A DNA stretch of 64,000 nucleotides from Xiphophorus maculatus (lineage: Eukaryota; Chordata; Actinopteri; Cyprinodontiformes; Poeciliidae), in NCBI RefSeq assembly GCF_002775205.1, contig NC_036456.1, positions 23,511,968 through 23,575,967 of the forward strand, read 5' to 3'. The translations under genes and the position numbers were made by a program. Each line of letters starts with the position of its first letter. Within the stretch, counting starts at the first letter, position 1. The notes beneath the pieces are model-generated. The model saw only the letters and a list, made by a program, of their open reading frames with translations. It was not told where the DNA came from and made no database searches. This document shows positions 13,306-43,993 of the stretch, piece by piece.

Positions 13306-13496
13306 ACTAGAAAATTTCGGAAGAAATTTAGCCGGGGCCTGCCAAGGCGCGCCCGTCGGGCATGGGCCCGGCGTCGTCGCGCCACAAATCGGCGTCGACG
13401 CCAAAGGACGCCGCGACGTGATCAGTGGCACGCGGAGAACCGCAAGAACGTTAAGCGAGGCGGACGTGCACCGTTCGGTACGATTTAAAATGTTGT
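13306..13496. repeat. Array unit start: CpG-rich block 0
   Basis: About 190 bases, very CpG-dense compared with the AT-rich repeats beside it. It contains GGCGCGCC, GGGCCCGGCG and the palindrome GGCGTCGACGCC. It starts ACTAGAAAATTTCGGAAG directly after unique finTRIM A flank, which defines the left edge of the array. Confidence 0.85.
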
Positions 13497-14980
13497 CAAG
13501 GCTTTTATTTTGGAAGTTTTGTTAACCTTCATTTCAAAGGGCCAAACTAATCCCATGCGTAATAGTCCTTGGGTTAAAATAGTTATATAATGCTCAAAAC
13601 ACAAGTAGCTGATGTAAAAATATTCAAGGCTTTTATTTTGAAATTTTCAGTATGCTTCATTTCAAAGGGCCAAACTAATACCACGTGTAACAGTGCTTTG
13701 GATGAAAAAGTCAAATAAAGCCAAAAAGAGCAATTACGTCATGTAAAATTATTCAAGGCTTTTATTTTGAAATTTTCAGAATGCTTCATTTCAAAGGGCC
13801 AAACTAATACCACGTGTAACAGTGCTTTGGATGAAAAAGTCAAATAAAGCCAAAAAGAGCAATTACCTGATGTAAAAATATTCAAGGCTTTTATTTTGAA
13901 ATTATTATTATGCTCCATTTTAAAGTTCCAAACTAATCCCATGTGTAACAGTGCTTTGGATGAAAAAGTCATATAAAGCCAAAAACAGCAATTACCTGAT
14001 GTAAAAATATTCAAGGCTTTTATTTTGAAATTTTCAGTATGCTTCATTTCAAAGTTCCAAAGTAATCCCATGTGTAACAGTGCTTTGGATGAAAACGTCA
14101 AATAAAGCCAAAAACAGCAATTACCTGATGTAAAAATATTCAAGGCTTTTATTTTGAAATTATTATTATGCTCCATTTTAAAGTTCCGAACTAATCCCAT
14201 GTGTAACATTGCTTTGGATGAAAAAGTCATATACGGCCAAAAAGAGCAATTACTTCATGTAAAATATTCAAGGCTTTTATTTTGAAATTTTCAGTATGCT
14301 TCATTTTAAAGTTCTGAACTAATACCACGTGTAAGAGTGCTTTGGATGAAAAAGTCAAATAAAGCCAAAAAGAGCAATTACGTCATGTAAAAATATTCAA
14401 GGCTTTTATTTTGAAACTTTTGTTAAGCTTCATTTCAAAGGGCCAAACTAATACCACGTGTAACAGTGCTTTGGATGAAAAAGTCAAATAAAGCCAAAAA
14501 GAGCAATTACATGATGTAAAAATATTCAAGGCTTTAATTTTGAAATTTTTGTTAATATTCATTTCAAAGGGCCAAACTAATACCATGTGTAACAGTGCTT
14601 TGGATGAAAAAGTCAAATAAAGCCAAAAAGAGCAATTACGTCATGTAAAAATATTCAAGGCTTTTATTTTGAAATTTGCAGGATGCTTCATTTCAAAGGG
14701 CCAAACTAATCCCATGCGTAATAGTCCTTCGGTTAAAATAGTTATATAATGCTCAAAACACAAGTAGCTGATGTAAAAATATTCAAGGCTTTTATTTTGA
14801 AATTTTTGTTAAGCTTCATTTTAAAGGGCCAAACTAATACCATGTGTAACAGTGCTTTGGATGAAAAAGTCAAATAAAGCCAAAAAAGAGCAATTACGTC
14901 ATGTAAAAATATTCAGGGCTTTTATTGTGAAATTTTCAATATGCTTAATTTTAAAGTGTAAAACTAATCCCATGTGTAAC
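13497..14980. repeat. 129-bp tandem block 1 (about 12 units)
   Basis: CAAGG landmarks fall at 13497, 13625, 13754, 13883, 14012, 14141, 14269, 14398, 14527, 14656, 14784 and (as CAGGG) 14914, giving spacings of 128-130. Variant segments (GTATGCTTCATTTC against TTATGCTCCATTTT) are shuffled between units. Confidence 0.9.
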
Positions 14981-15993
14981 AGTTACTGAGTTAAATCAGT
15001 TATATACAGCCCAAAGCAGCAAGTAGTTGTAAAGGCCAGTTCTCAGTCCTGATCTGTTTCAACTGAGGATAGATAGAACTACAACGATGCGTATTCGTAG
15101 TCCTAACCAGCAGCCAATAGCCTCTTGAGTTCCGTTGCTATGGCAAATAATGGTCTCAGCAGGTGTGAGCTCTGAGCTGTGAGCTCTCAAACACACAAGT
15201 GTGTTTGAGCAAACACACTTTACTGAAAAAAAGCATTGGAAACAAATCCTTCTTGTTCGGGAACCGTAATACATATTCGAAAAGCGTTTTAAGCGTATGA
15301 CAGTTCAATGTGTCTTCTGCGATAGTCCCGAGATTCATATCTGTACCTCACTCAGAGCATTTACAGTGATGAGAGAAAGAAATGTTGTGCCCAGATATGA
15401 ACCGAGGTCGGCTGTCACTCTAATATGAGCAAAAATGAGAAACTTTGGGTCGCTTAGAGGCAAATTGTGGACAAACCATAACTGGTATCGACGAGCCGTC
15501 TTCACTTTCGAAGAGATCACAGACGTATCTACAAAATGAAATTTGAATGGCATTTCTAGGTGAATTTGTGACGACACAGCAAATCCTCAAAAATAGGGTA
15601 TTTCTAGGATTTTTCCCATTGAGTTATAATGGGGTTTTTTTCGTAGTTTTTTGCGAATTATGTCGCCATGTTAATCCCGAATCCCACCAAAAGTAATAGC
15701 TGGAATGGCGTGAATTTTCTGCACGTTTTGATACCTCTTTTGTAGGTGTGCACGCAGCGGTATGAGCCGCATTAACGGTTACGGATGAAAAATAAAGAAT
15801 AACTAGAAAATTTCGGAAGAAATTTAGCCGGGGCCTGCCAAGGCGCGGCCGTGGGGTTCGGGCCCGGCGTCGTCGCGCCACAAATCGGCGTCGACGCCAA
15901 AGAACGCCGCGACGTAATCAGTGGCACGCGGAGAACCGCAAGAACGTTAAGCGAGGCGGACGTGCACCGTTCGGTACGATTTAAAATGTTGTC
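14981..15993. repeat. Array linker 1 (no hairpin module)
   Basis: Runs from GTTACTGAGTTAAATCAG to the end of the CpG-rich block. It contains the CTCAAACACAC palindrome and CCCATTGAGTTATAATGG; the hairpin with the TGGCAGGCCCC arm is absent and the CpG block follows AATAAAGAATA directly. Confidence 0.85.
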
Positions 15994-17219
15994 GAGGCTT
16001 TTATTTTGGAAGTTTTGTTAAACTTCATTTCAAAGGGCCAAACTAATCCCATGCGTAATAGTCCTTGGGTTAAAATAGTTATATAATGCTCAAAACACAA
16101 GTAGCTGATGTAAAAAAATGCAAGGCTTTTATTTTGAAATTTTCAGTATGCTTCATTTTTAAGTTCCGAACTAATACCACGTGTAAGAGTGCTTTGGATG
16201 AAAAAGTCAAAAAAAGCCAAAAAGAGCTATTACCTCATGTAAAAATATTCAAGGCTTTTATTTTGAAATTGTCAGTATGCTTCATTTTAAAGTTCTGAAC
16301 TAATACCACGTGTAAGAGTGCTTTGGATGAAAAAGTCAAATAAAGCCAAAAAGAGCTATTACGTCATGTAAAAATATTCAAGGCTTTTATTTTGAAATTT
16401 TCAGTATGCTTCCTTTCAAAGGGCCAAACTAATACCATGTGTAACAGTGCTTTGGATGAAAAAGTCAAATAAAGCCAAAAAGAGCAATTACATGATGTCA
16501 AAATATTCAAGGCTTTCATTTTGAAATTATTACTTTGCTCCATTTTAAAGTTCCAAACTAATCCCATGTGTAACAGTGCTGTGGATGAAAAAGTCATATA
16601 CGGCCAAAAAAAGCAATTACATGATGTAAAAATATTCAAGGCTTTTATTTTGAAATTTTCAGTATGCTTCATTTAAGAGGGCCAAACTAATACCACGTGT
16701 AACAGTGCTTTGGATGAAAAAGTCACATAAAGCCAAAAACAGCAATTACCTGATGTAAAAATATTCAAGGCTTTTATTTTGAAATTATTATTATGCTCCA
16801 TTTTAAAGTTCCGAACTAATCCCATGTGTAACATTGCTTTGGATGAAAAAGTCATATACGGCCAAAAAGAGCAATTACTTCATGTAAAAATATTCAAGGC
16901 TTTTATTTTGAAATTTGCAGGATGCTTCATTTCAAAGGGCCAAAGTAATCCCATGCGTAATAGTCCTTCGGTTAAAATAGTTATATAATGCTCAAAACAC
17001 AAGTAGCTGATGTAAAAATATTCAAGGCTTTTATTTAGAAATTTTTGTTAAGCTTCATTTTAAAGGGCCAAACTAATACCATGTGTAACAGTGCTTTGGA
17101 TGAAAAAGTCAAATAAAGCCAAAAAAGAGCAATTACGTCATGTAAAAATATTCAGGGCTTTTATTGTGAAATTTTCAATATGCTTAATTTTAAAGTGTAA
17201 AACTAATCCCATGTGTAAC
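15994..17219. repeat. 129-bp tandem block 2 (about 10 units)
   Basis: Same unit as block 1. An extra copy of the start-type unit (GCGTAATAGTCCTTCGG) occurs near 16955, close to the block end, as also in blocks 1 and 4. Confidence 0.9.
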
Positions 17220-18313
17220 AGTTACTGAGTTAAATCAGTTATATACAGCCCATAGCAGCAGTAGTTCTAAAGGCCAGTTCTCAGTCCTGATCTGTTTCAA
17301 CTGAGGATAGATAGAACTACAGCGATGCGTATCTGTAGTCCAAATCAGCAGCCAATAGCCTCTTGAGATCCGTTGCTATGGCAAATAATGGTCTCAGCAG
17401 GTGTGAGCTGTGAGCGCTGAGCTCTCAAACACACAAGTGTGTTTGAGCAAACACACTTTACTGAAAAAAAGCATTGGAAACAAATCCTTCTTGTTCGGGA
17501 ACCGTAATACATATTCGAAAAGCGTTTTAAGCGTATGACAGTTCAATGTGTCTTCTGCGATAGTCCCGAGATTCATATCTGTACCTCACTCAGAGCATTT
17601 ACAGTGATGAGAGAAAGAAATGTTGTGCCCAGATCTGATCCGAGGTCGGCTGTCACTCTAATATGAGCAAAAATGAGGAACTTTGGGTCGCTTAGAGGCA
17701 AATTGTGGACAAACCGTAACTGGTATCGACGAGCCGTCTTCACTTTCGAAGAGATCACAGACGTATCTACAAAATGAAATTTGAATGGCATTTCTAGGTG
17801 AATTTGTGACGACACAGCAAATCCTCAAAAATAGGGTATTTCTAGGATTTTTCCCATTGAGTTATAATGGGGTTTTTTTCGTAGTTTTTTGCGAATTATG
17901 TCGCCACGTTAAGCCCAAATCCCACCAGAAGTAATAGCTCCAATGGCGTGAATTTTCTGCACGTTTTGATACCTCATTTGTAGGTGTGCACCCAGCGGTA
18001 CGAGCCGCATTAACGGTTACGGAAGAAAAATAAAGTTCTATAATAATAATAATATTAAAGAGACGCTTCTCTCCGACAATAGTAATAGGTTCCTGCCATT
18101 GCTTTGCATGGCAGGCCCCAACTAGAAAATTTCGGAAGAAATTTAGCCGGGGCCTGCCAAGGCGCGCCCGTGGGGTTTGGGCCCGGCGTCGTCACGCCAC
18201 AAATTGGCATCGACGCTAAAGAACGCCGCAACGTAATCAATGGCACGCGGAGAACCGCAAGAACGTTAAGTGAGGCGGACGTGCACCGTTCGGTACGATT
18301 TAAAATTTTTGTC
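17220..18313. repeat. Array linker 2 (with hairpin module)
   Basis: Complete linker with palindrome, Y-rich ATTATAATGGGG segment, an (ATA)n stretch, hairpin (CCTGCCAT, loop, ATGGCAGG) at about 18092-18115 and CpG block. Several CpGs in this block have decayed to CpA/TpG. Confidence 0.85.
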
Positions 18314-19673
18314 GAGGCTTTTATTTTGGAAGTTTTGTTAAACTTCATTTCAAAGGGCCAACCTAATCCCATGAATAACAGTCATTGGATAAAATCAGTT
18401 ATATAGTGCTCAAAACAGCAATAATCTCATGTAAAAATTCTCAAGGCTTTTATTTTGAAATTTTCAGTATGCTCCATTTTAAAGTTCCGAACGAATCCCA
18501 TGTGTAACAGTGCTTTGGATAAAAAAGTCACATAAAGCCAAAAAGCGCAATTACCTGATGTAAAAATATGCAAGGCTTTTATTTTGAAATTATTATTATG
18601 CTCCATTTTAAAGTTCCGAACTAATCCCATGTGTAACAGTGCTTTGGATGAAAAAGTCACATAAAGCCAAAAAGCGCAATTACCTGATGTAAAAATATTC
18701 AAGGCTTTTATTTTGAAATTATTATTATGCTCCATTTTAAAGTTCCGAACAAATCCCATGTGTAACAGTGCTTTGGATGAAAAAGTCATATACGGCCAAA
18801 AAGAGCAATTACATGACGTAAAAATATTCAAGGCTTTTATTTTGAAATTTTCAGTATGCTTCATTTCAGAGGGCCAAACTATTCCATTGTGTAACAGTGC
18901 TTTGGATAAAAAAGTCACATAAAGCCAAAAAGCGCAATTACCTGATGTAAAAATATTCAAGGCTTTTATTTTGAAATTATTATTATGCTCCATTTTAAAG
19001 TTCCGAACTAATCCCATGTGTAACATTGCTTTGGATGAAAAAGTCAAATAAAGCCAAAAAGAGCAATTACCTGATGTAAAAATATTCAAGGCTTTTATTT
19101 TGAAATTATTATTATGCTCCATTTTAAAGTTCCAAACTAATCCCATGTGTAACAGTGCTTTGGATGAAAAAGTCATATAAAGCCAAAAACAGCAATTACC
19201 TGATGTAAAAATATTCAAGGCTTTTATTTTGAAATTATTATTATTCTCCATTTTAAAGTTCCAAAGTAATCCCATGTGTAACAGTGATTTGGATGAAAAC
19301 GTCAAATAAAGCCAAAAACAGCAATTACCTGATGTAAAAATATTCAAGGCTTTTATTTTGAAATTATTATTCTCCATTTTAAAGTTCCAAACTAATCCAA
19401 TGTATAACATTGCTTTGGATGAAAAAGTCATATACGGCCAAAAAAAGCAATTACCTGATGTGAAAATATTCAAGGCTTTTATTTTGAAATTATTATTCTC
19501 CATTTTAAAGTTCCAAAGTAATCCCATGTGTAACAGTGCTTTGGATGAAAACGTCAAATAAAGCCAAAAAAAGCAATTACCTGATGTGAAAATATTCAAG
19601 GCTTTTATTTTGAAATTATTATTATGCTCCATTTTAAAGTTCCAAACTAATCCCATGTGTAACAGTTACTGAG
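18314..19673. repeat. 129-bp tandem block 3 (about 11 units); minus-strand open frame of 409 codons
   Basis: Units of 129 and 126 bp, all in-frame lengths, so the minus strand is open from 19656 to 18427 as repeated 42-43-residue segments (MTFSSKALLHMG, NFKIKALNIFTS). There is no recognisable domain, and AATAAA occurs in every unit on the same strand. I treat it as a repeat and not as a gene. Confidence 0.85.
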
Positions 19674-20765
19674 TTAAATCAGTTATATACAGCCCATAGC
19701 AGCAGTAGTTCTAAAGGCCAGTTCTCAGTCCTGATCTGTTTCAACTGAGGATAGATAGAACTACAGTGATGCGTATTCGTAGTCCTAACCAGCAGCCAAT
19801 AGCCTCTTGAGTTCCGTTGCTATGGCAAATAATGGTCTCAGCAGGTGTGAGCTCTGAGCTGTGAGCTCTCAAACACACAAGTGTGTTTGAGCAAACACAT
19901 TTTACTGAAAAAAAGCATTGGAAACAAATCCTTCTTGTTCGGGAACCGTAATACATATTCGAAAAGCGTTTCGAGCGTATGACAGTTCAATGTGTCTTCT
20001 GCGATAGTCCCGAGATTCATATCTGTACCTCACTCAGAGCATTTACAGCGATGAGAGAAAGAAATGTTGTGCCCAGATATGAACCGAGATGGGCTGTCAC
20101 TGTAATTTCAGCAAAAATGAGAAAGTTTGGGTCGCTTAGAGGCAAATTGTGGACAAACCGTAACTGGTATCGACGAGCCGTCTTCACTTTCGAAGAGATC
20201 ACAGACGTATCTACAAAATGAACTTTGAATGGCATTTCTACGTGAATTTGTGACGACACAGCAAATCCTCAAAAATAGGGTATTTCTAGGATTTTTCCCA
20301 TTGAGTTATAATGGGGTTTTTTTCGTAGTTTTTTGCGAATTATGTCGCCACGTTAAGCCCAAATCCCACCAGAAGTAATAGCTCCAATGGCGTGAATTTT
20401 CTGCACGTTTTGATACCTCATTTGTAGGTGTGCACCCAGCGGTACGAGCCGCATTAACGGTTACGGAAGAAAAATAAAGTTCTATAATAATAATAATAAT
20501 ATTAAAGAGACGCTTCTCTCCGACAATAGTAATAGGTTCCTGCCATTGCTTTGCATGGCAGGCCCCAACTAGAAAAACAAAATTTCTGAAGAAATTTAGC
20601 CGGGGCCTGCCAAGGCGCGCCCGTCGGGCTTGGGCCCGGCGTCGTCACGCCACAAATTGGCGTCGACGCTAAAGAACGCCGCAACGTAATCAGTGGCACG
20701 CGGAGAACCACAAGAACGTTAAGCGAGGCGGACGTGCACCATTCAGTACGATTTAAAATGTTGTC
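19674..20765. repeat. Array linker 3 (hairpin; ACAAAATTTCTG subfamily)
   Basis: Complete linker. The CpG block starts ACTAGAAAAACAAAATTTCTG, an alternative start with six extra bases shared with linkers 4, 5 and 8. The plus strand is open for 80 codons (19979-20221), but this frame is broken in most other linkers. Confidence 0.85.
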
Positions 20766-21733
20766 AAGGCTTTTATTTTGGAAGTTTTGTTAAACTTCAT
20801 TTCAAAGGGCCAAACTAATCCCATGCGTAATAGTCCTTGGGTTAAAATAGTTATATAATGCTCAAAACACAAGTAGCTGATGTAAAAATATTCAAGGCTT
20901 TTATTTTGAAATTTTCAGTATGCTCCATTTTAAAGTTCCGAACTAATCCCATGTGTAACAGTGCTTTGGATGAAAAAGTCATATACGGCCAAAAAAAGCA
21001 ATTACGTCATGTAAAATATTCAAGGCTTTTATTTTGAAATTTTTGTTAAGCTTCATTTCAAAGGGCCAAACTAATACCATGTGTAACAGTGCTTTCAATG
21101 AAAAAGTCAAATAAAGCCAAAAAGAGCAATTACATGATGTAAAAAATATTCAAGGCTTTTATTTAGAAACTTTTGTTAAGCTTCATTTCAAAGGGCCAAA
21201 CTAATACCACGTGTAACAGTGCTTTGGATGAAAAAGTCAAATAAAGCCAAAAAGAGCAATTACATGATGTAAAAATATTCAAGGCTTTTATTTTGAAATT
21301 TTTGTTAATATTCATTTCAAAGGGCCAAACTAATACCATGTGTAACAGTGCTTTGGATGAAAAAGTCAAATAAAGCCAAAAAGAGCAATTACGTCATGTA
21401 AAAATATTCAAGGCTTTTATTTTGAAATTTGCAGGATGCTTCATTTCAAAGGGCCAAACTAATCCCATGCGTAATAGTCCTTCGGTTAAAATAGTTATAT
21501 AATGCTCAAAACACAAGTAGCTGATGTAAAAATATTCAAGGCTTTTATTTTGAAATTTTTGTTAAGCTTCATTTTAAAGGGCCAAACTAATACCATGTGT
21601 AACAGTGCTTTGGATGAAAAAGTCAAATAAAGCCAAAAAAGAGCAATTACGTCATGTAAAAATATTCAGGGCTTTTATTGTGAAATTTTCAATATGCTTA
21701 ATTTTAAAGTGTAAAACTAATCCCATGTGTAAC
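20766..21733. repeat. 129-bp tandem block 4 (about 8 units)
   Basis: Same unit family as its neighbours. Single-A length changes in the GTAAAAATATTC segment shift the frame between units. Confidence 0.9.
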
Positions 21734-22820
21734 AGTTACTGAGTTAAATCAGTTATATACAGCCCAAAGCAGCAATTAGTTCTAAAGGCCAGTTCAGTCC
21801 TGATCTGTTTCAACTGAGTATTCCACTATAGATAGAACTACAGTGATGCGTATTCGTAGTCCTAACCAGCAGCCAATAGCCTCTTGAGTTCCGTTGCTAT
21901 GGTAAATAATGGTCTCAGCAGGTGTGAGCTCTGAGCTCTGAGCTCTCAAACACACAAGTGTGTTTGAGCAAACACACTTTACTGAAAAAAAGCATTGGAA
22001 ACAAATCCTTCTTGTTCGGGAACCGTAATACATATTCGAAAAGCGTTTTAAGCGTATGACAGTTCAATGTGTCTTCTGCGATAGTCCCGAGATTCATATC
22101 TGTACCTCACTCAGAGCATTTACAGTGATGAGAGAAAGAAATGTTGTGCCCAGATATGAACCGAGATGGGCTGTCACTCTAATTTGAAGAAAAATGAGAA
22201 ACTTTGGGTCGCTTAGAGGCAAATTGTGGACAAACCGTAACTGGTATCGACGAGCCGTCTTCACTTTCGAAGAAATCACAGACGTATCTACAAAATGAAA
22301 TTTGAATGGCATTTCTAGGTGAATTTGTGACGACACAGCAAATCCTCAAAAATAGGGTATTTCTAGGATTTTTCCCATTGAGTTATAATGGGGTTTTTTT
22401 CGTAGTTTTTTGCGAATTATGTCGCCACGTTAAGCCCAAATCCCACCAGAAGTAATAGCTGGAATGGCGTGAATTTTCTGCATGTTTTGATACCTCATTT
22501 GTAGGTGTGCACCCAGCGGTACGAGCCGCATTAACGGTTACGGAAGAAAAATAAAGAATAAAGAAACACTTTCTCCGACAATAGCAATAGGTTCCTGCCA
22601 TTGCTTTGCATGGCAGGCCCCAACTAGAAAAACAAAATTTCTGAAGAAATTTAGCCGGGGCCTGCCAAGGCGCGCCCGTCGGGCTTGGGCCCGGCGTCGT
22701 CACGCCACAAATTGGCGTCGACGCTAAAGAACGCCGCGACGTAATCAGTGGCACGCGGAGAACCGCAAGAACGTTAAGCGAGGCGGACGTGCACCATTCG
22801 GTACGATTTAAAATGTTGTC
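21734..22820. repeat. Array linker 4 (hairpin; ACAAAATTTCTG subfamily)
   Basis: Complete linker, with a 10-base addition (ATTCCACTAT) at about 21819 next to GATAGATAGAAC that other linkers lack. Confidence 0.85.
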
Positions 22821-23654
22821 AAGGCTTTTATTTTGGAAGTTTTGTTAAACTTCATTTCAAAGGGCCAAACTAATCCCATGCGTAATAGTCCTTGGGTTAA
22901 AATAGTTATATAATGCTCAAAACACAAGTAGCTGATGTAAAAATATTCAAGGCTTTTATTTTGAAATTTTCAGTATGCTCCATTTTAAATTTCCGAACTA
23001 ATCCCATGTGTAACAGTGCTTTGGATGAAAAAGTCATATACGGCCAAAAAAAGCAATTACGTCATGTAAAATATTCAAGGCTTTTATTTTGAAATTTTTA
23101 GTATGCTTAATTTTAAAGTTCCAAACTAATCCCATGTGTAACATTGCTTTGGATGAAAAAGTCATATACGGCCAATAAGAGCAATTACGTCATGTAAAAT
23201 ATTCAAGGCTTTTATTTTGAAATTTTTAGTATGCTTAATTTTAAAGTTCCAAACTAATCCCATGTGTAACATTGCTTTGGATGAAAAAGTCATATACGGC
23301 CAATAAGAGCAATTACGTCATGTAAAATATTCAAGGCTTTTATTTTGAAATTATTATTATGCTCCATTTTAAAGTTCCGAACTAATCCCATGTGTAACAT
23401 TGCTTTGGATGAAAAAGTCATATACGGCCAATAAGAGCAATTACGTCATGTAAAATATTCAAGGCTTTTATTTTGAAATTATTATTATGCTCCATTTTAA
23501 AGTTCCAAACTAATCCCATGTGTAACATTGCTTTGGATGAAAAAGTCATATACGGCCAAAAAGAGCAATTACGTCATGTAAAATATTCAAGGCTTTTATT
23601 TTGAAATTTTCAGTATGCTTAATTTTAAAGTTCCAAACTAATCCCATGTGTAAC
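22821..23654. repeat. 128-bp-period tandem block 5 (about 7 units)
   Basis: Most units here are 128 bp because one A is missing in GTAAAATATTC, and four consecutive units share CATATACGGCCAATAAGAG. The local expansion of a 128-bp variant destroys any long reading frame, which argues against coding selection on the array. Confidence 0.85.
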
Positions 23655-26222: not shown

Positions 26223-26309
26223 TTTTTCATACTTGCTCTTTTCGCTTTTCAGACTTACAATACTTCATTTGAGCCAGCTGGGGGAGACAATTCTCTGTTT
26301 TAGCCAGTA

Positions 26310-26724
26310 GGGTATTAGGGTTTTCAATGGATTTTCCCCATTGAATTATAATGGGGTTTTTTTCGTAGTTTTTTGCGAATTATGTCGCCATGTTCATCCC
26401 GAATCCCACCAAAAGTAATAGCTGGAATGGCGTGAATTTTCTGCAGGTTTTGATACCTCTTTTGTAGGTGTGCACGCAGCGGTATGAGCCGCATTAACGG
26501 TTACGGATGAAAAATAAAGAATTATAATAATAACTAGAAAATTTCGGAAGAAATTTAGACGGGGCCTGCCAAGGCGCGCCCGTGGGGTTCGGGCCCGGCG
26601 TCGTCGCGCCACAAATCGGCGTCGACGCCAAAGAACGCCGCGACGTAAGCAGTGGCACGCGGAGAACCGCAAGAACGTTAAGCGAGGCGGACGTGCACCG
26701 TTCGGTACGATTTAAAATGTTGTC
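26310..26724. repeat. Array linker 6 (right part only)
   Basis: Starts at the ATTATAATGGGG segment, lacks the hairpin module, and ends with a CpG block of the AAAATTTCGG subfamily in which most CpGs are kept. Confidence 0.8.
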
Positions 26725-28462: not shown

Positions 28463-29535
28463 AGTTACTGAGTTAAATCAGTTATATACAGCCCAAAGCA
28501 ACAAGTAGTTGTAAAGGCCAGTTCTCAGTCCTGATCTGTTTCAACTGAGGATAGATAGAACTACAGTGATGCGTTTTTGTAGTCCAAATCACCAGCCAAT
28601 AGCCTCTTGAGTTCCGTTGCTATGGCAAATAATGGTCTCAGCAGGTGTGAGCTCTGAGCTGTGAGCTCTCAAACACACAAGTGTGTTTGAGCAAACACAC
28701 TTTACTGAAAAAAAGCATTGGAAACAAATCCTTCTTGTTCGGGAACCGTAATACATATTCGAAAAGCGTTTTAAGCGTATGACAGTTCAATGTGTCTTCT
28801 GCGATAGTCCCGAGATTCATATCTGTACCTCACTCAGAGCATTTACAGTGATGAGAGAAAGAAATGTTGTGCCCATATCTGATCCGAGGTCGGCTGTCAC
28901 TCTAATATGACCAAAAATGAGAAACTTTGGGTCGCTTAGAGGCAAATTGTGGACAAACCGTAACTGGTATCGACGAGCCGTCTTCACTTTCGAAGAGATC
29001 ACAGACGTATCTACAAAATGAAATTTGAATGGCATTTCTAGGTGAATTTGTGACGACACAGCAAATCCTCAAAAATAGGGTATTTCTAGGATTTTTCCCA
29101 TTGACTTATAATGGGATTTTTTTCGTAGTTTTTTGCGAATTATGTCGCCACGTTAAGCCCAAATCCCACCAAAAGTAATAGCAATCATGGCGTGAATTTT
29201 CTGCACGTTTTGATACCTCATTTGTAGGTGTGCACCCAGCGGTATGAGCCGCATTAACGGTTACGGAAGAAAAATAAATAAAGAGACGCTTCTCTCCGAC
29301 AATAGTAATAGGTTCCTGCCATTGCTTTGCATGGCAGGCCCCAACTAGAAAATTTCGGAAGAAATTTAGCCGGGGCCTGCCAAGGAGCGGCCGTGGGGCT
29401 TGGGCCCGGCGTCGTCACGCCACAAATCGGCGTCGACGCCAAAGAACGCCGCGAAGTAATCAGTGGCACGCGGTGAACCGCAAGAACGTTAAGCGAGGCG
29501 GACGTGCACCGTTCGGTACGATTTAAAATGTTGTC
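28463..29535. repeat. Array linker 7 (with hairpin)
   Basis: Complete linker; AAAATTTCGG subfamily; hairpin module at about 29310-29342. Confidence 0.85.
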
Positions 29536-30760
29536 AAGGCTTTTATTTTGGAAGTTTTGTTAAACTTTATTTCAAAGGGCCAAACTAATCCCATGCGTAA
29601 TAGTCCTTGGGTTAAAATAGTTATATAATGCTCAAAACACAAGTAGCTGATGTAAAAAAATGCAAGGCTTTTATTTTGAAATTTTCAGTATGCTTCATTT
29701 TTAAGTTCCGAACTAATACCACGTGTAAGAGTGCTTTGGATGAAAAAGTCAAAAAAAGCCAAAAAGAGCTATTACCTCATGTAAAAATATTCAAGGCTTT
29801 TATTTTGAAATTATTATTATGCTCCATTTTAAAGTTCCAAACTAATCCCATGTGTAACAGTGCTTTGGATGAAAAAGTCATATACGGCCAAAAAAAGCAA
29901 TTACATGATGTAAAAATATTCAAGGCTTTTATTTTGAAATTTTCAGTATGCTTCATTTCAGAGGGCCAAACTAATACCACGTGTAACAGTGCTTTGGATG
30001 AAAAAGTCATATACGGCCAAAAAGAGCAATTACGTCATGTAAAATATTCAAGGCTTTTATTTTGAAATTTTCAGTATGCTTAATTTTAAAGTTCCAAACT
30101 AATCCCATGTGTAACAGTGCTTTGGATGGAAAAGTCAGATAAAGCCAAAAAGAGCAATTACATGATGTAAAAATATTCAGGGCTTTTATTTTGAAATTAT
30201 TATTATGCTCCATTTTAAAGTTCCAAACTAATCCCATGTGTAACAGTGCTTTGGATGAAAAAGTCATATACGGCCAAAAAGAGCAATTACGTCATGTAAA
30301 AATATTGAGGGCTTTTATTTTGAAATTATTATTATGCTTAATTTTAAAGTTCCGAACTAATCCCATGTGTAACAGTGCTTTGGATGAAAAAGTCATACAA
30401 AGCCAAAAACAGCAATTGCATGATGTAAAAATATTCAAGGCTTTTATTTTGAAATTATTATTATGCTCCATTTTAAAGTTCCGAACTAATACCATGTGTA
30501 ACAGTGGTTTGGATGAAAAAGTCATATACGGCCAAAAAGAGCAATTACATGATGTAAAAATATTCAAGGCTTTTATTTTGAAATTATTATTATGCTCCAT
30601 TTTAAAGTTCCAAAGTAATCCCATGTGTAACAGTGCTTTGGATGGAAAAGTCAAATAAAGCCAAAAAGAGCAATTACGTCATGTAAAAATATTCAGGGCT
30701 TTTATTTTGAAATTTTCAATATGCTTAATTTTAAAGTTCCAAACTAATCCCATGTGTAAC
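29536..30760. repeat. 129-bp tandem block 7 (about 10 units); both strands partly open
   Basis: Units ending in CATATACGG instead of AAATAAAG keep the plus strand open too (29628-30065 and 30191-30658), while the minus strand is open over the same bases. Overlapping openness on both strands marks period, not coding. Confidence 0.85.
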
Positions 30761-31782
30761 AGTTACTGAGTTAAATCAGTTATATACAGCCCATAGCAGC
30801 AGGTAGTTCTAAAGGCCAGTTCTCAGTCCTGATCTGTTTCAACTGAGGATAGATAGAACTACAGTGATGCGTATTCGTAGTCCTAACCAGCAGCCAATAG
30901 CCTCTTGAGTTCCGTTGCTATGGCAAATAATGGTCTCAGCAGGTGTGAGCTGTGAGCTCTGAGCTCTCAAACACACAAGTGTGTTTGAGCAAACACACTT
31001 TACTGAAAAAAAGCATTGGAAACAAATCCTTCTTGTTCGGGAACCGTAATACATATTCGAAAAGCGTTTTAAGCGTATGACAGTTCAATGTGTCTTCTGC
31101 GATAGTCCCGAGATTCATATCTGTACCTCACTCAGAGCATTTACAGCGATGAGAGAAAGAAATGTTGTGCCCATATCTGATCCGAGAGCGGCTGTCACTG
31201 TAATTTCAGCAAAAATGAGAAAGTTTGGGTCGCTTAGAGGCAAATTGTGGACAAACCGTAACTGGTATCGACGAGCCGTCTTCACTTTCGAAGAGATCAC
31301 AGACGTATCTACAAAATGAAATTTGAATGGCATTTCTAGGTGAATTTGTGACGACACAGCAAATCCTCAAAAATAGGGTATTTCTAGGATTTTTCCCATT
31401 GAGTTATAATGGGGTTTTTTTCGTAGTTTTTTGCGAATTATGTCGCCACGTTAAGCCCAAATCCCACCAGAAGTAATAGCTCCAATGGCGTGAATTTTCT
31501 GCACGTTTTGATACCTCATTTGTAGGTGTGCACCCAGCGGTACGAGCCGCATTAACGGTTACGGAAGAAAAATAAAGTTCTATAACTAGAAAAACAAAAT
31601 TTCTGAAGAAATTTAGCCGGGGCCTGCCAAGGCGCGCCCGTCGGGCTTGGGCCCGGCGTCGTCACGCCACAAATCGGCGTCGACGCTAAAGAACGCCGCA
31701 ACGTAATCAGTGGCACGCGGAGAACCACAAGAACGTTAAGCGAGGCGGACGTGCACCATTCAGTACGATTTAAAATGTTGTC
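30761..31782. repeat. Array linker 8 (no hairpin module)
   Basis: The CpG block of the ACAAAATTTCTG subfamily follows AATAAAGTTCTATA directly. The 80-codon plus-strand frame is intact (31077-31319). Confidence 0.85.
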
Positions 31783-33263
31783 AAGGCTTTTATTTTGGAA
31801 GTTTTGTTAAACTTCATTTCAAAGGGCCAAACTAATCCCATGCGTAATAGTCCTTGGGTTAAAATAGTTATATAATGCTCAAAACACAAGTAGCTGATGT
31901 AAAAATATTCAAGGCTTTTATTTTGAAATTTTCAGTATGCTCCATTTTAAAGTTCCGAACTAATCCCATGTGTAACAGTGCTTTGGATGAAAAAGTCATA
32001 TACGGCCAAAAAAAAGCAATTACGTCATGTAAAATATTCAAGGCTTTTATTTTGAAATTTTCAGTATGCTCCATTTTAAAGTTCTGAACTAATCCCATGT
32101 GTAACAGTGCTTTGGATGAAAAAGTCACATAAAGCCACAAACAGCAATTACGTCATGTAAAAATATTCAAGGCTTTTATTTTGAAATTTTGAGTATGCTT
32201 CATTTCAAAGGGCCAAACTAATCCCATGTGTAACAGTGCTTTGGATGAAAAAGTCAAATAAAGCCAAAAAGAGCAATTACATGATGTAAAAATATTCAAG
32301 GCTTTTATTTTGAAATTGTCAGTATGTTTCATTTTAAAGTTCCGAACTAATCCCATGTGTAACAGTGCTTTGGATGAAAAAGTCATACAAAGCCAAAAAC
32401 AGCAATTACATGATGTAAAAATATTCAAGGCTTTTATTTTGAAATTATTATTATGCTTCATTTTAAAGTTCCAAACTAATACCATGTGTAACAGTGCTTT
32501 GGATGAAAAAGTCAAATAAAGCCAAAAAGAGCAATTACATGATGTAAAAATATTCAAGGCTTTTATTTTGAAATTTTCAGTATGCTTCATTTTAAAGTTC
32601 CAAACTAATCCCATGTGTAACAGTGCTTTGGATGAAAAAGTCAAATAAAGCCAAAAAGAGCAATTACCTGATGTAAAAATATTCAAGGCTTTTATTTTGA
32701 AATTATTATTATGCTCCATTTTAAAGTTCCAAACTAATCCCATGTGTAACAGTGCTTTGGATGAAAAAGTCATACAAAGCCAAAAACAGCAATTGCATGA
32801 TGTAAAAATATTCAAGGCTTTTATTTTGAAATTATTATTATGCTTCATTTTAAAGTTCCAAACTAATACCATGTGTAACAGTGCTTTGGATGAAAAAGTC
32901 AAATAAAGCCAAAAAGAGCAATTACATGATGTAAAAATATTCAAGGCTTTTATTTTGAAATTTTCAGTATGCTTCATTTTAAAGTTCCAAACTAATCCCA
33001 TGTGTAACAGTGCTTTGGATGAAAAAGTCAAATAAAGCCAAAAACAGCAATTACCTGATGTAAAAATATTCAAGGCTTTTATTTTGAAATTATTATTCTC
33101 CATTTTAAAGTTCCAAACTAATCCCATGTGTAACATTGCTTTGGATGAAAAAGTCATATACGGCCAAAAAAAGCAATTACCTGATGTAAAACTATTCAAG
33201 GCTTTTATTTTGAAATTATTATTATGCTCCATTTTAAAGTTCCAAACTAATCCCATGTGTAAC
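31783..33263. repeat. 129-bp tandem block 8 (about 12 units); minus-strand open frame of 367 codons
   Basis: A three-unit segment (387 bp) is duplicated within the block, around 32300-32690 and 32690-33070, as shown by the repeated succession of CATACAAAGCC and AAATAAAGCC unit types. Confidence 0.85.
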
Positions 33264-34338
33264 AGTTACTGAGTTAAATCAGTTATATACAGCCCATAGC
33301 AGCAGTAGTTCTAAAGGCCAGTTCTCAGTCCTGATCTGTTTCAACTGAGGATAGATAGAACTACAGCGATGCGTATTCGTAGTCCAAATCAGCAGCCAAT
33401 AGCCTCTTGAGTTCCGTTGCTATGGCAAATAATGGTCTCAGCAGGTGTGAGCTCTGAGCTGTGAGCTCTCAAACACACAAGTGTGTTTGAGCAAACACAC
33501 TTTACTGAAAAAAAGCATTGGAAACAAATCCTTCTTGTTCGGGAACCGTAATACATATTCGAAAAGCGTTTCGAGCGTATGACAGTTCAATGTGTCTTCT
33601 GCGATAGTCCCGAGATTCATATCTGTACCTCACTCAGAGCATTTACAGTGATGAGAGAAAGAAATGTTGTGCCCAGATATGAACCGAGATGGGCTGTCAC
33701 TCTAATTTGAAGAAAAATGAGAAACTTTGGGTCGCTTAGAGGCAAATTGTGGACAAACCGTAACTGGTATCGACGAGCCGTCTTCACTTTCGAAGAGATC
33801 ACAGACGTATCTACAAAATGAAATTTGAATGGCATTTCTAGGTGAATTTGTGACGACACAGCAAATCCTCAAAAATAGGGTATTTCCAGGATTTTTCCCA
33901 TTGACTTATAATGGGGGTTTTTTCGTAGTTTTTTGCGAATTATGTCGCCACGTTAAGCCCAAATCCCACCAAAAATAATAGCTCCAATGGCGTGAATTTT
34001 CTGCACGTTTTGATACCTCATTTGTAGGTGTGCACCCAGCGGTACGAGCCGCATTAACGGTTACGGAAGAATAAAGAATATTAAAGAGACGCTTCTCTCC
34101 GACAATAGTAATAGGTTCCTGCCATTGCTTTGCATGGCAGGCCCCAACTAGAAAATTTCGGAAGAAATTTAGCCGGGGCCTGCCAAGGCGCGGCCGTGGG
34201 GTTCGGGCCCGGCGTCGTCGCGCCACAAATCGGCGTCGACGCCAAAGAACGCCGCGACGTAAGCAGTGGCACGCGGAGAACCGCAAGAATGTTAAGCGAG
34301 GCGGACGTGCACCGTTCGGTACGATTTCAAATGTTGTC
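33264..34338. repeat. Array linker 9 (with hairpin)
   Basis: Complete linker with hairpin and CpG block (AAAATTTCGG subfamily). Confidence 0.85.
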
Positions 34339-36073
34339 AAGGCTTTTATTTTGGAAGTTTTGTTAAACTTCATTTCAAAGGGCCAAACTAATCCCATGCG
34401 CAATAGTCCTTGGGTTAAAATAGTTATATAATGCTCAAAACACAAGTAGCTGATGTAAAAATATTCAAGGCTTTTATTTTGAAATTTTCAGAATGCTTCA
34501 TTTCAAAGGGCCAAACTAATACCACGTGTAACAGTGCTTTGGATGAAAAAGTCAAATAAAGCCAAAAAGAGCAATTACCTGATGTAAAAATATTCAAGGC
34601 TTTTATTTTGAAATTATTATTATGCTCCATTTTAAAGTTCCAAACTAATCCCATGTGTAACAGTGCTTTGGATGAAAAAGTCATATAAAGCCAAAAACAG
34701 CAATTACCTGATGTAAAAATATTCAAGGCTTTTATTTTGAAATTATTATTATTCTCCATTTTAAAGTTCCAAAGTAATCCCATGTGTAACAGTGCTTTGG
34801 ATGAAAACGTCAAATAAAGCCAAAAACAGCAATTACCTGATGTAAAAATATTCAAGGCTTTTATTTTGAAATTATTATTCTCCATTTTAAAGTTCCAAAC
34901 TAATCCCATGTGTAACATTGCTTTGGATGAAAAAGTCATATACGGCCAAAAAAAGCAATTACCTGATGTAAAAATATTCAAGGCTTTTATTTTGAAATTA
35001 TTATTATTCTCCATTTTAAAGTTCCAAAGTAATCCCATGTGTAACAGTGCTTTGGATGAAAACGTCAAATAAAGCCAAAAACAGCAATTACCTGATGTAA
35101 AACTATTCAAGGCTTTTATTTTGAAATTATTATTATGCTCCATTTTAAAGTTCCAAACCAATCCCATGTGTAACAGTGCTTTGGATGAAAAAGTCATATA
35201 CGGCCAAAAAAAGCAATTACATGATGTAAAAATATTCAAGGCTTTTATTTTGAAATTTTCAGAATGCTTCATTTCAAAGGGCCAAACTAATCCCATGCGT
35301 AATAGTCCTTGGGTTAAAATAGTTATATAATGCTCAAAACACAAGTAGCTGATGTAAAAATATTCAAGGCTTTTATTTTGAAATTTTCAGTATGCTTCAT
35401 TTCAAAGGGCCAAACTAATACCACGTGTAACAGTGCTTTGGATGAAAAAGTCAAATAAAGCCAAAAAGAGCAATTACGTCATGTAAAATTATTCAAGGCT
35501 TTTATTTTGAAATTTTCAGAATGCTTCATTTCAAAGGGCCAAACTAATACCACGTGTAACAGTGCTTTGGATGAAAAAGTCAAATAAAGCCAAAAAGAGC
35601 AATTACCTGATGTAAAAATATTCAAGGCTTTTATTTTGAAATTATTATTATGCTCCATTTTAAAGTTCCAAACTAATCCCATGTGTAACAGTGCTTTGGA
35701 TGAAAAAGTCAAATAAAGCCAAAAACAGCAATTACCTGATGTAAAAATATTCAAGGCTTTTATTTTGAAATTATTATTCTCCATTTTAAAGTTCCAAACT
35801 AATCCCATGTGTAACATTGCTTTGGATGAAAAAGTCATATACGGCCAAAAAAAGCAATTACCTGATGTAAAAATATTCAAGGCTTTTATTTTGAAATTAT
35901 TATTATTCTCCATTTTAAAGTTCCAAAGTAATCCCATGTGTAACAGTGCTTTGGATGAAAACGTCAAATAAAGCCAAAAACAGCAATTACCTGATGTAAA
36001 ACTATTCAAGGCTTTTATTTTGAAATTATTATTATGCTCCATTTTAAAGTTCCAAACTAATCCCATGTGTAAC
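34339..36073. repeat. 129-bp tandem block 9 (about 14 units), apparently two fused blocks
   Basis: A start-type unit (GCGTAATAGTCCTTGGG, then TAATGCTCAAAACACAAG) occurs again at about 35293-35350 in mid-block, and the units after it repeat the order seen after 34440. This fits a fusion or duplication of half a block that lost its linker. Confidence 0.8.
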
Positions 36074-37084
36074 AGTTACTGAGTTAAATCAGTTATATAC
36101 AGCCCATAGCAGCAGTAGTTCTAAAGGCCAGTTCTCAGTCCTGATCTGTTTCAACTGAGGATAGATAGAACTACAGCGATGCGTATTCGTAGTCCAAATC
36201 AGCAGCCAATAGCCTCTTGAGTTCCGTTGCTATGGCAAATAATGGTCTCAGCAGGTGTGAGCTCTGAGCTGTGAGCTCTCAAACACACAATTGTGTTTGA
36301 GCAAACACACTTTACTGACAAAAAGCATTGGAAACAAATCCTTCTTGTTCGGGAACCGTAATACATATTCGAAAAGCGTTTTAAGCGTATGACAGTTCAA
36401 TGTGTCTTCTGCGATAGTCCCGAGATTCATATCTGTACCTCACTCAGAGCATTTACAGTGATGAGAGAAAGAAATGTTGTGCCCAGATATGAACCGAGAT
36501 GGGCTGTCACTCTAATTTGAAGAAAAATGAGAAAGTTTGGGTCGCTTAGAGGCAAATTGTGGACAAACCGTAACTGGTATCGACGAGCCGTCTTCACTTT
36601 CGAAGAGATCACAGACGTATCTACAAAATGAAATTTGAATGGCATTTCTAGGTGAATTTGTGACGACACAGCAAATCCTCAAAAATAGGGTATTTCTAGG
36701 ATTTTTCCCATTGAGTTATAATGGGGTTTTTTTCGTAGTTTTTTGCGAATTATGTCGCCACGTTAAGCCCAAATCCCACCAGAAGTAATAGCTCCAATGG
36801 CGTGAATTTTCTGCACGTTTTGATACCTCATTTGTAGGTGTGCACCCAGCGGTACGAGCCGCATTAACGGTGACGGAAGAAAAATAAAGAAGACTAGAAA
36901 ATTTCGGAAGAAATTTAGCCGGGGCCTGCCGAGGCGCGCCCGTCGGGCATGGGCCCGGCGTCGTCGCGCCACAAATCGGCGTCGACGCCAAAGAACGCCG
37001 CGACGTAAGCAGTGGCACGCGGAGAACCGCAAGAACGTTAAGCGAGGCGGACGTGCACCGTTCGGTACGATTTAAAATGTTGTC
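36074..37084. repeat. Array linker 10 (no hairpin module)
   Basis: The CpG block begins after AATAAAGAAG. The palindrome is the short CACACAATTGTG form. Confidence 0.85.
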
Positions 37085-38307
37085 GAGGCTTTTATTTTGG
37101 AAGTTTTGTTAAACTTCATTTCAAAGGGCCAAACTAATCCCATGCGTAATAGTCCTTGGGTTAAAATAGTTATATAATGCTCAAAACACAAGTAGCTGAT
37201 GTAAAAATATTCAAGGCTTTTATTTTGAAATTTTCAGTATGCTTCATTTCAAAGGGCCGAACTAATACCACGTGTAACAGTGCTTTGGATGAAAAAGTCA
37301 AATAAAGCCAAAAAGAGCAATTACCTGATGTAAAATTATTCAAGGCTTTTATTTTGAAATTTTCAGAATGCTTCATTTCAAAGGGCCAAACTAATACCAC
37401 GTGTAACAGTGCTTTGGATGAAAAAGTCAAATAAAGCCAAAAAGAGCAATTACCTGATGTAAAAATATTCAAGGCTTTTATTTTGAAATTATTATTATGC
37501 TCCATTTTAAAGTTCCAAACTAATCCCATGTGTAACAGTGCTTTGGATGAAAAAGTCATATAAAGCCAAAAACAGCAATTACCTGATGTAAAAATATTCA
37601 AGGCTTTTATTTTGAAATTATTATTATTCTCCATTTTAAAGTTCCAAAGTAATCCCATGTGTAACAGTGCTTTGGATGAAAACGTCAAATAAAGCCAAAA
37701 ACAGCAATTACCTGATGTAAAAATATTCAAGGCTTTTATTTTGAAATTATTATTCTCCATTTTAAAGTTCCAAACTAATCCCATGTGTAACATTGCTTTG
37801 GATGAAAAAGTCATATACGGCCAAAAAAAGCAATTACCTGATGTAAAAATATTCAAGGCTTTTATTTTGAAATTATTATTATTTTCCATTTTAAAGTTCC
37901 AAAGTAATCCCATGTGTAACAGTGCTTTGGATGAAAACGTCAAATAAAGCCAAAAACAGCAATTACCTGATGTAAAACTATTCAAGGCTTTTATTTTGAA
38001 ATTATTATTATGCTCCATTTTAAAGTTCCAAACTAATCCCATGTGTAACATTGCTTTGGATGAAAAAGTCATATACGGCCAAAAAAAGCAATTACCTGAT
38101 GTAAAAATATTCAAGGCTTTTATTTTGAAATTATCATTATTCTCCATTTTAAAGTTCCAAAGTAATCCCATGTGTAACAGTGCTTTGGATGAAAACGTCA
38201 AATAAAGCCAAAAACAGCAATTACCTGATGTAAAACTATTCAAGGCTTTTATTTTGAAATTATTATTATGCTCCATTTTAAAGTTCCAAACTAATCCCAT
38301 GTGTAAC
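37085..38307. repeat. 129-bp tandem block 10 (about 10 units); minus-strand open frame of 376 codons
   Basis: Units of 126 and 129 bp only. The unit order matches the second half of block 9 closely, which suggests a recent shared duplication. Confidence 0.85.
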
Positions 38308-39210
38308 AGTTACTGAGTTAAATCAGTTATATGCAGCCCATAGCAGCAGTAGTTCTAAAGGCCAGTTCTCAGTCCTGATCTGTTTGAACTGAGGATAGAT
38401 AGAACTACAGTGATGCGTATTCGTAGTCCAAATCAGCAGCCAATAGCCTCTTGAGTTCCGTTGCTATGGCAAATAATGGTCTCAGCAGGTGTGAGCTCTG
38501 AGCTGTGAGCTCTCAAACACACAAGTGTGTTTGAGCAAACACACTTTACTGAAAAAAAGCATTGGAAACAAATCCTTCTTGTTCGGGAACCGTAATACAT
38601 ATTCGAAAAGCGTTTCGAGCGTATGACAGTTCAATGTGTCTTCTGCGATAGTCCCGAGATTCATATCTGTACCTCACTCAGAGCATTTACAGCGATGAGA
38701 GAAAGAAATGTTGTGCCCATATCTGATCCGAGAGCGGCTGTCACTGTAATTTCAGCAAAAATGAGAAAGTTTGGGTCGCTTAGAGGCAAATTGTGGACAA
38801 ACCGTAACTGGTATCGACGAGCCGTCTTCACTTTCGAAGAGATCACAGACGTATCTACAAAATGAAATTTGAATGGCATTTCTAGGTGAATTTGTGACGA
38901 CACAGCAAATCCTCAAAAATAGGGTATTTCTAGGATTTTTCCCATTGAGTTATAATGGGGTTTTTTTCGTAGTTTTTTGCGAATTATGTCGCCACGTTAA
39001 GCCCAAATCCCACCACAAGTAATAGCTCCAATGGCGTGAATTTTCTGCACGTTTTGATACTTCATTTGTAGGTGTGCACCCAGCGGTACGAGCCGCATTA
39101 ACGGTTACGGAAGAAAAATAAAGTTCTATAATAATAATATTAAAGAGACGCTTCTCTCCGACAATAGTAATAGGTTCCTGCCATTGCTTTGCATGGCAGG
39201 CCCCAATAAT
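38308..39210. repeat. Array linker 11, terminal, ends in hairpin
   Basis: Complete linker up to the hairpin (about 39179-39202) followed by AATAATAATAAAG. No CpG block follows, so the array ends at the 3' end of the unit. Confidence 0.85.
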
Positions 39211-39286
39211 AATAAAGAAACTTTTCTTGGGAGAATAGCAATAGGTTCCTGCCATTGCTTTGCATGGCAGGCCCCAATAATAAAGA
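39211..39286. repeat. Second copy of the terminal hairpin module
   Basis: Repeats the last ~70 bases of the linker (AATAGCAATAGGTTCCTGCC, hairpin, GGCAGGCCCC, AATAATAAAG), then unique sequence. It is slightly diverged from the preceding copy. Confidence 0.8.
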
Positions 39287-43970: not shown

Positions 43971-43993
43971 TTACAATAAAAGGTCTAACAGTG

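What the first reader, a model, noticed from the sequence alone, without database searches (positions are those of the whole stretch)
13306..39286. A 26-kb two-level tandem array: ~108 copies of a 129-bp unit in ten blocks separated by ~1-kb linkers
Block length varies (7-14 units) but the block ends are fixed: every block opens with the same diverged start unit and most close with the same diverged end unit. The linker is present once per period. I do not recognise this family. It looks like a complete element with an internal minisatellite that has itself been amplified head to tail, inside an immune-gene cluster.
Basis: partly seen in the sequence, partly recalled or inferred. Interest (0 to 1): 0.75.

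Follow-up and report, generated by a model that had tools for sequence, protein, structure and literature searches.

The report
Self-nesting rolling-circle transposon array
The 26-kb repeat in this fish-like genome is a stack of eleven copies of a mobile DNA element that seems to insert again and again into the front end of its own copies, so that the order of the pieces still records the nesting.

Summary
There are eleven periods; one (24793-26532) has no block. The array is not a locally amplified satellite. It is eleven head-to-tail copies of a non-autonomous Helentron family (HINE), sense strand minus: 5' cap with a palindromic subterminal inverted repeat, (ATT)n tract, ~0.8-kb 5' region, 129-bp repeats, 3' end with hairpin and CTAG beside T. 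The family is dispersed: 1,868 exact body-start and 1,727 exact cap matches genome-wide. Copy e1 is 100% identical over 2,493 bp at seven other loci. A Helentron with an open Rep-helicase-endonuclease frame ends in the same sequence in the same sense, 91% over 175 bp. The blockless copy is its internal-deletion derivative. A probable empty site lies beside a TRIM paralogue. In 15 other arrays caps and bodies follow nearly well-formed bracket order: 82 bodies, 81 caps, 8 arrays perfect. This points to recursive insertion into the copies' own 5' tract. The window array lacks three expected caps. The parts are known; the bracket-ordered nesting is the new aspect.

The parts
13306..15801 (-). e1: HINE, 12 units; uncapped, its cap probably the one at 39205-39275
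   Evidence: 2,493 bp 100% identical at 7 other loci; body ends AATAAAGAAT, then the next element's AACTAG
15802..18120 (-). e2: HINE, 10 units, one cap
18121..20567 (-). e3: HINE, 11 units, one cap
20568..22622 (-). e4: HINE, 8 units, one cap; variant 3' end
22623..24792 (-). e5: HINE, 7 units, one cap; variant 3' end; 268-bp alternative segment at 24078-24345
24793..26532 (-). e6: internal-deletion derivative of the autonomous Helentron, no 129-bp block, uncapped; variant 3' end
   Evidence: 90-93% to the Helentron 5' region (L047), 88.6% to its 3' end (L046), 99.9% over 1,740 bp to L022 878-2616
26533..29343 (-). e7: HINE, 14 units, one cap
29344..31584 (-). e8: HINE, 10 units, uncapped
31585..34146 (-). 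e9: HINE, 12 units, one cap; variant 3' end
34147..36892 (-). e10: HINE, 14 units, uncapped
36893..39204 (-). e11: HINE, 10 units, cap at 39133-39204
39205..39275 (-). Displaced cap of the class that single e1-type copies carry
   Evidence: same class as the caps of single copies L018, L020, L026
13306..13350 (-). 3' end of e1: subTIR TGGCAGGCCCC, hairpin AAATTTCttccGAAATTT, CTAG, T
   Evidence: hairpin in the predicted fold, though not beyond shuffles; same end on the autonomous Helentron
39246..39275 (-). 5' terminus: palindromic subTIR GGGGCCTGCCA...TGGCAGG, next to flanking TT
   Evidence: fold z -2.5, 1 of 200 shuffles as good; inverted match to the 3' end, shuffle p 0.002
13041..13305 (.). 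Left genomic flank of the insertion
   Evidence: aligns with the probable empty site
39276..39450 (.). Right genomic flank of the insertion
   Evidence: continues the alignment to the probable empty site
56016..56371 (.). Probable paralogous empty site, 3' of the TRIM gene at 54264-55949
   Evidence: aligns through the joined flanks (score 195, against 159 for the left flank alone)
10779..12551 (+). TRIM (RBCC-PRY-SPRY) gene upstream of the array
   Evidence: Pfam
45416..47077 (+). Next TRIM gene downstream
   Evidence: Pfam

Best explanation
The array is eleven copies of one non-autonomous Helentron family (ten HINEs with central 129-bp repeats and one deletion derivative of the Helentron) at a single insertion site behind a TRIM gene. 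The copies are moved by an autonomous Helentron of the same genome (shown: shared 3' end and sense, open coding frame with the expected domains; inferred: that this protein moves them). Helentrons prefer T-rich targets, and each copy carries one itself, the (ATT)n tract between its 5' cap and its body. New copies insert there or at the outer edge of the cap. Each insertion into the tract leaves the host body uncapped and pushes the host's cap outward, so that arrays read like nested brackets (shown by order and counts at other loci; the insertion events are inferred). In the window the cap class typical of e1 stands at the far right end, so e2-e11 probably lie within e1's tract. Composites may later move as units (inferred). 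Caps can be lost afterwards; three are missing here.
For: Dispersed copies, including singles with both ends. e1 is identical over 2,493 bp at 7 other loci; left flanks differ at the five of these eight sites where a unique left flank is in hand: window, L010, L011, L013, L029. ACTAG starts the copy at 12 of 12 unique left flanks, preceded by A (second T in the minus sense) in 9 of 12. AA follows the cap in 4 of 4 unique right flanks read: L018, L020, L026, window. Probable empty site. Helentron: 24 PF14214 matches; the one copy read has PF14214, PIF1 and Exo_endo_phos; 175 bp at its 3' end are 91% identical to the HINE 3' end in the same sense; a second copy has an identical 798-bp 3' end and a different flank. 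e6 is a Helentron deletion derivative. Bracket order: 15 arrays, 82 bodies, 81 caps, 44 uncapped against 43 extra caps, 8 of 15 perfect; order violations 8, against means of 26 (across arrays) and 22 (within arrays) in shuffles, with 0 and 1 of 100,000 as low; 38 if read backwards. Cap class: 9 of 10 testable displaced caps match the nearest open body; shuffles match 36% of tests on average, p 5e-5.
Against: The window array is itself unbalanced: 11 bodies, 8 caps; e6, e8 and e10 have no displaced cap, and it is the one miss in the cap-class test. Seven of 15 arrays are unbalanced and 8 order violations remain. The autonomous element's own cap was not seen: both copies read have a HINE joined at that place. 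The 20 loci were chosen by an e1-linker query and are biased to e1-type copies. The empty site is a diverged paralogue, and the first 65 bp of the right flank alone score only 38 in the region behind that gene, against 25-32 in four other parts of the window. Distances at the 3' end (subTIR about 27 nt, hairpin about 5 nt from the end) are shorter than the 38-60 and 8-35 nt given for mite HINEs. Same-sense insertion is not a rule of the genome: on C1 a + and a - array lie cap to cap near 19858.2-19858.4 kb. Transposition was not observed.
Confidence: 0.85

Rival explanations
1. A higher-order satellite: one element (or dimer) was amplified in place by unequal crossing over, with the short blocks changing length the same way.
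For: Head-to-tail order and shared runs of unit variants between blocks, e.g. blocks 1 and 4, 9 and 10. 3' ends and linkers of the same element are not correlated (r -0.19), so some exchange inside blocks is likely.
Against: Junctions differ in kind; position does not go with similarity; linkers do not go with the next element's 3' end as crossing over within blocks would give (r 0.16, p 0.20, 8 pairs; weak power); single copies are dispersed; crossing over does not predict cap counts near equal to uncapped bodies.
Confidence: 0.06
2. A rolling-circle concatemer: a multimer was made in one replication event and inserted whole, as proposed for plant centromeric Helitron arrays.
For: Helentrons are rolling-circle elements; arrays with several 5' ends and one 3' end are described in plants (PMC12628747, passages). 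A HINE-Helentron junction shared at 97.9% over 1,747 bp by two loci suggests that composites move.
Against: Linkers in the window differ by 1.2-4.7% between copies, unit strings differ from block to block, and each of the eleven copies has its own 3' end; a single event would give near-identical units and equal junctions.
Confidence: 0.06
3. Cap stacks and uncapped bodies are unrelated: caps multiply as a ~71-bp tandem repeat at the outer end, and internal copies lose caps by deletion.
For: Cap spacing inside runs on C1 is 63-84 bp, most often 71, and short direct repeats can slip; caps and bodies are not equal in 7 of 15 arrays.
Against: Does not predict near-equal totals (44 uncapped, 43 extra), perfect order in 8 of 15, or class matching in 9 of 10.
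Confidence: 0.06
4. Assembly artefact.
For: No reads could be examined; unit number inside blocks may be wrong.
Against: 83 distinct units of 108, several junction types, different genomic flanks, and the same structure on other contigs.
Confidence: 0.03

Closest known systems
HINEs / DINE-1, non-autonomous Helentrons (Thomas et al. 2014, PMC4067079; passages seen)
   Same: Non-coding; subTIRs, 3' palindrome, T-rich or TT target, microsatellite or tandem repeats in some copies, Helentron partner with endonuclease
   Different: Mites, mosquito and flies in the passages seen; distances at the 3' end shorter here; long nested arrays here
Cg_HINE elements of Pacific oyster (PMC7492417; abstract and second half of Results read)
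   Same: subTIR plus inverted repeat, microsatellite, satDNA-like central repeats in fixed orientation, subTIR plus palindrome, TT target, no TSD
   Different: The parts read describe dispersed elements, not bracket-ordered arrays
FoHeli elements of Fusarium oxysporum (PMC5148889; passages seen)
   Same: Multiple 5' termini with one 3' terminus, for which self-insertion is proposed there; one tandem triple in Metarhizium acridum
   Different: The passages give few cases; here 15 arrays were tested by cap/body counting
Truncated Helitron arrays of plant centromeres (Xiong et al. 2016, as described in PMC12628747, passages)
   Same: Tandem Helitron-derived arrays
   Different: There many arrays with multiple 5' ends and a single 3' end; here each body in the window keeps its 3' end
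CHeX-Sat, Rex-Helitron4 composite satellite of Xiphophorus (preprint PMC13277934; passages seen)
   Same: About 2-kb Helitron-satellite composite in tandem in a fish
   Different: Described there as truncated, chimeric and not interspersed; no sequence could be compared here
Platyfish Helitrons with texim (PMC4021074, passages seen; Zhou et al. 2006, seen only in a reference list)
   Same: Fish autonomous Helitrons/Helentrons
   Different: HINEs or arrays are not described in the passages seen; a search of that text for 'tandem' and 'non-autonomous' found nothing. Whether this genome is a platyfish is unknown

Membership tests
HINE (non-autonomous Helentron) | subTIRs, at least 11 bp identical | tested here: met
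   11 bp GGGGCCTGCCA with the 3' end of e1, 10 bp with that of e11; shuffle p 0.002 for 10 or more
HINE (non-autonomous Helentron) | 5' subTIR within a few nt of the 5' end, with a complementary inverted repeat | tested here: met
   TT then GGGGCCTGCCA...TGGCAGG; fold z -2.5
HINE (non-autonomous Helentron) | 3' subTIR 38-60 nt and palindrome 8-35 nt from the 3' end (values for mites) | tested here: inconclusive
   Order met, distances about 27 and 5 nt; 3' fold energies not beyond shuffles, z -1.1 to -1.9
HINE (non-autonomous Helentron) | T-rich/TT target, no target-site duplication | tested here: met
   CTAG then T in 12 of 12, TT in 9 of 12 left flanks; TT before GGGG in 4 of 4 right flanks read; no obvious duplication at the probable empty site, though the paralogue is diverged
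HINE (non-autonomous Helentron) | Partner Helentron in the genome sharing the ends | tested here: met
   3' end 91% over 175 bp; part of the 5' region 90% over 208 bp
HINE (non-autonomous Helentron) | Partner encodes Rep/helicase with C-terminal endonuclease | tested here: met
   PF14214, PF05970, PF03372 in one copy read; the N-terminal 387 aa have no Pfam match
HINE (non-autonomous Helentron) | Partner carries the same 5' cap | tested here: inconclusive
   Both copies read have a HINE joined where the cap would be
HINE (non-autonomous Helentron) | Mobilised by the partner protein | not testable with these tools
   Needs a transposition assay
Canonical Helitron | 5' TC, 3' CTRR, insertion between A and T, no endonuclease (features recalled, except that the endonuclease is named as a Helentron feature and 81 passages) | tested here: not met
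   3' CTAG fits, but 5' is GGGGCC, target mostly TT, endonuclease present in the partner
Satellite DNA | Tandem occurrence only, no defined single-copy ends | tested here: not met
   Single copies with both ends at L018, L020, L026; 16 single-body groups among the listed places on C1/C2

The most novel reading that the evidence does not exclude
The element carries its own landing pad: a T-rich microsatellite between 5' cap and body makes each copy a preferred target for the next one. Arrays therefore grow recursively, mostly in one sense and away from other sequence, and the nested caps are a readable insertion history. This would be a self-nesting 'safe-haven' strategy and a direct route from transposon to higher-order satellite.
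Probability: 0.4. Interest if true: 0.75.

Novelty: new variant of a known kind. Interest (0 to 1): 0.57.

Why it matters
How transposons turn into satellite arrays is debated (unequal exchange, rolling-circle multimers, or repeated insertion). Here the cap/body order separates these routes by simple counting and favours repeated self-insertion. The same count could be made in other genomes with Helentrons. The genome also holds Helentron copies with long open frames, and HINE copies identical over 2.5 kb, so recent activity is likely.

Tried and rejected
Coding potential of the units: the minus frame is open through many units (ORFs up to 409 aa), but diversity by codon position is not significantly uneven (p 0.09) and does not show the two-low-one-high pattern. 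Three Pfam families reach E 0.001 for the 409-aa frame, but no single stretch passes on its own, so I treat them as repeat noise. Rfam: no match. Scans for the cap and the unit in viral contigs gave 0 and 1, and for a linker motif in GTDB contigs 0; the one hit (L001) shares only the 20-nt word as far as I read it by eye. I first took the 1.4 kb in e6 for a foreign insertion; it matches the Helentron 5' region. I first read the element in the plus sense; the Helentron's sense and the HINE anatomy show it is minus. A search of the Helentron hits' own 3.6-kb stretches (L030-L044, 15 of 24 matches) with the HINE found nothing, because the shared ends lie further out. Mantel tests: 3' end against linker of the same element uncorrelated (r -0.19), linker against next 3' end r 0.16, p 0.20. 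A count of 3' ends genome-wide was tried several times and never answered, so it is missing.
Full report
Observation. The 129-bp unit occurs 108 times in ten blocks, all in one orientation; opening and closing units are conserved and distinct from interior ones. The array runs 13306-39275. It has eleven periods of 1.74-2.81 kb, one without a block (24793-26532). A search with the 3' end, unit, linker and caps found them nowhere else in the window at E 1e-3. Rfam gives nothing.

Anatomy. Read on the minus strand, a period is: flanking TT; a cap with GGGGCCTGCCA and its inverted partner; an (ATT)n tract of variable length; a ~0.8-kb 5' region; 7-14 units; and a ~190-bp GC-rich 3' end with TGGCAGGCCCC, hairpin AAATTTCttccGAAATTT, CTAG, then T. 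Four of the eleven copies have no cap directly before their 5' region and one has two. The order matches HINEs as described for mite, Drosophila and oyster (PMC4067079 passages; PMC7492417, second half of Results). The distances at the 3' end are shorter, and the 3' hairpin, though present in the predicted folds, is not stronger than shuffles.

The genome. The window lies in a held genome of 704 Mb, unnamed, on contig C14. The e1 linker has 2,157 first-look candidates; the 40 scored are all 100% identical over 816 bp and lie on C1-C6. I fetched 9 kb around 20 of these 40. All 20 hold elements of this family. Three are single elements with both ends (L018, L020, L026), one is a two-element array seen complete (L019), and the other 16 run off the fetched stretch on at least one side or hold several copies. 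e1, from its 3' end to the end of its 5' region (2,493 bp), is 100% identical at L010, L011, L013, L015, L022, L023 and L029. At the window, L010, L011, L013 and L029 the left flank is unique and different each time. Genome-wide exact matches: 1,727 caps (control 0) and 1,868 body starts (control 0); the latter pattern also fits the Helentron and its derivatives, so not all are HINEs.

The partner. PF14214 finds 24 matches, all over the cut-off: 14 at 1e-34 or better, nine near 1e-29 and one fragment. In the copy at C4:2.86 Mb the frame runs from about 2858739 to 2865656. It holds DUF6570 and Helitron_like_N, then PIF1 helicase and Exo_endo_phos (PDB sequence matches include PIF1 and Helraiser); its first 387 aa have no Pfam match. 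Downstream, in the same sense, 175 bp are 91% identical to the HINE 3' end and finish with the same CTAG. Three caps and HINE copies follow at once. A second copy on C19 has the identical last 798 bp and then other DNA. Upstream in both, a HINE 3' end is joined to a stretch 90% identical to the HINE's 5' region over 208 bp, then to sequence matching e6. So e6 consists of the Helentron's 5' part and 3' end with the middle missing. A near-identical e6 stands at L022 (99.9% over 1,740 bp), so this derivative has spread too. The two Helentron loci share the HINE-Helentron junction at 97.9% over 1,747 bp, which suggests that a composite moved as one; a segmental duplication is not excluded.

The empty site. 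The left and right flanks, joined, align without interruption to 56016-56371 behind the TRIM gene at 54264-55949 (score 195 joined, 159 left alone). The right flank's first 65 bp alone score 38 there, against 25-32 in four other parts of the window, so the right half of this evidence is modest and the exact target letters are uncertain.

How the array grew. Junctions are of two kinds: a cap directly followed by the next copy's 3' end, or a body broken inside its (ATT)n tract by the next copy's 3' end, without cap. Some caps are followed by another cap preceded by the rest of an (ATT)n tract. In L016 the two halves fit: a body ends in TTCTATAATAAT, then comes one complete copy, then AATAATAATAATATTAAAGAGACGC and the matching cap class. 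This is what insertion into the tract would leave. I sorted caps into classes by the letters before the palindrome and copied the classes by hand into a test. Of 10 displaced caps that have an uncapped body to their left in the same stretch (eight stretches, the window included), 9 match the nearest open one; shuffles match 36% of tests on average, p 5e-5. The window is the one miss: it needs a match four bodies deep.

Counting brackets. The listed positions of caps and bodies cover C1 and the start of C2 (100 rows each; 99 caps and 98 bodies used). Same-strand groups within 5.5 kb, the one distance tried, give 15 arrays with more than one body, 16 single bodies (13 with one cap, 2 with none, 1 with three) and 2 caps without body. 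The 15 arrays hold 82 bodies and 81 caps, with 44 uncapped bodies and 43 extra caps. Eight are perfect bracket sequences, five of them simple pairs and one [0,0,1,0,3,0,1,3]. Violations of bracket order number 8. Shuffling cap counts across arrays gives 26 on average (0 of 100,000 as low); shuffling within arrays gives 22 (1 of 100,000); reading backwards gives 38. Summed imbalance is 17, against 37 across shuffles (137 of 100,000 as low). Without the five pairs the order result stays (2 and 5 of 100,000). Joining the two C2 arrays across the Helentron between them lowers violations to 5. The window array has no violation but lacks three caps. Exact matching misses mutated caps, so some imbalance is expected.

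Other histories. In the window, nearby copies are not more alike than distant ones, and 3' ends and linkers of the same copy are uncorrelated. Together with shared runs of unit variants, this points to exchange inside the blocks as well. L021 and L022 share e1 followed by a nearly identical second copy, again consistent with composites moving. On C1 a + and a - array lie cap to cap near 19858.2-19858.4 kb, so insertion is not always in one sense.

What is known and what is new. Helentrons, HINEs with satellite-like central repeats, tandem Helitrons and self-insertion with multiple 5' ends are all described (PMC4067079, PMC7492417, PMC12628747, PMC5148889, PMC5876387; passages or sections). The listings of my eight paper searches showed no title or abstract on bracket-ordered HINE arrays or on a fish HINE family; the library is open-access only and I read few of the papers. 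A 2026 preprint reports a Helitron-containing 2-kb composite satellite in Xiphophorus (PMC13277934, passages); it could not be compared here. I file this as a new variant of a known kind.

Noticed in passing
L047:1224-1286 (C4, autonomous Helentron 5' region): A 63-bp stretch, 95% identical to part of the last unit plus the linker start, lies inside the autonomous Helentron; the 129-bp repeat may have grown from this partial unit.
   Followed up: no
24078-24345: 268-bp alternative segment in e5; eight fetched loci show a gap of about 285 bp between the two linker halves (L012, L013, L015, L017, L023, L025, L027, L028), so it may mark a common subfamily. The letters in those gaps were not compared.
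   Followed up: partly
G000 C17, C6, C14, C18 and others: A second Helitron_like_N group of nine matches with open frames up to 2,885 aa, distinct by score from the partner described here.
   Followed up: no
C1:19858446-19884627: An array with eight caps in a row followed by eight bodies, seven of them uncapped, then three more bodies with one cap; a long example of the nesting. A + array lies cap to cap with it.
   Followed up: partly
39335-40202: Two pairs of direct repeats (71 bp at 94%, 181 bp at 98%) around other sequence in the right flank, perhaps another nested mobile element.
   Followed up: no
43645-43971: 54-bp tandem repeat containing palindromic CTTACTGGCAACACTGTTGCCAGTAAG.
   Followed up: no
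12036-12121: Glu-rich repeat inside the TRIM reading frame at 10779-12551.
   Followed up: no
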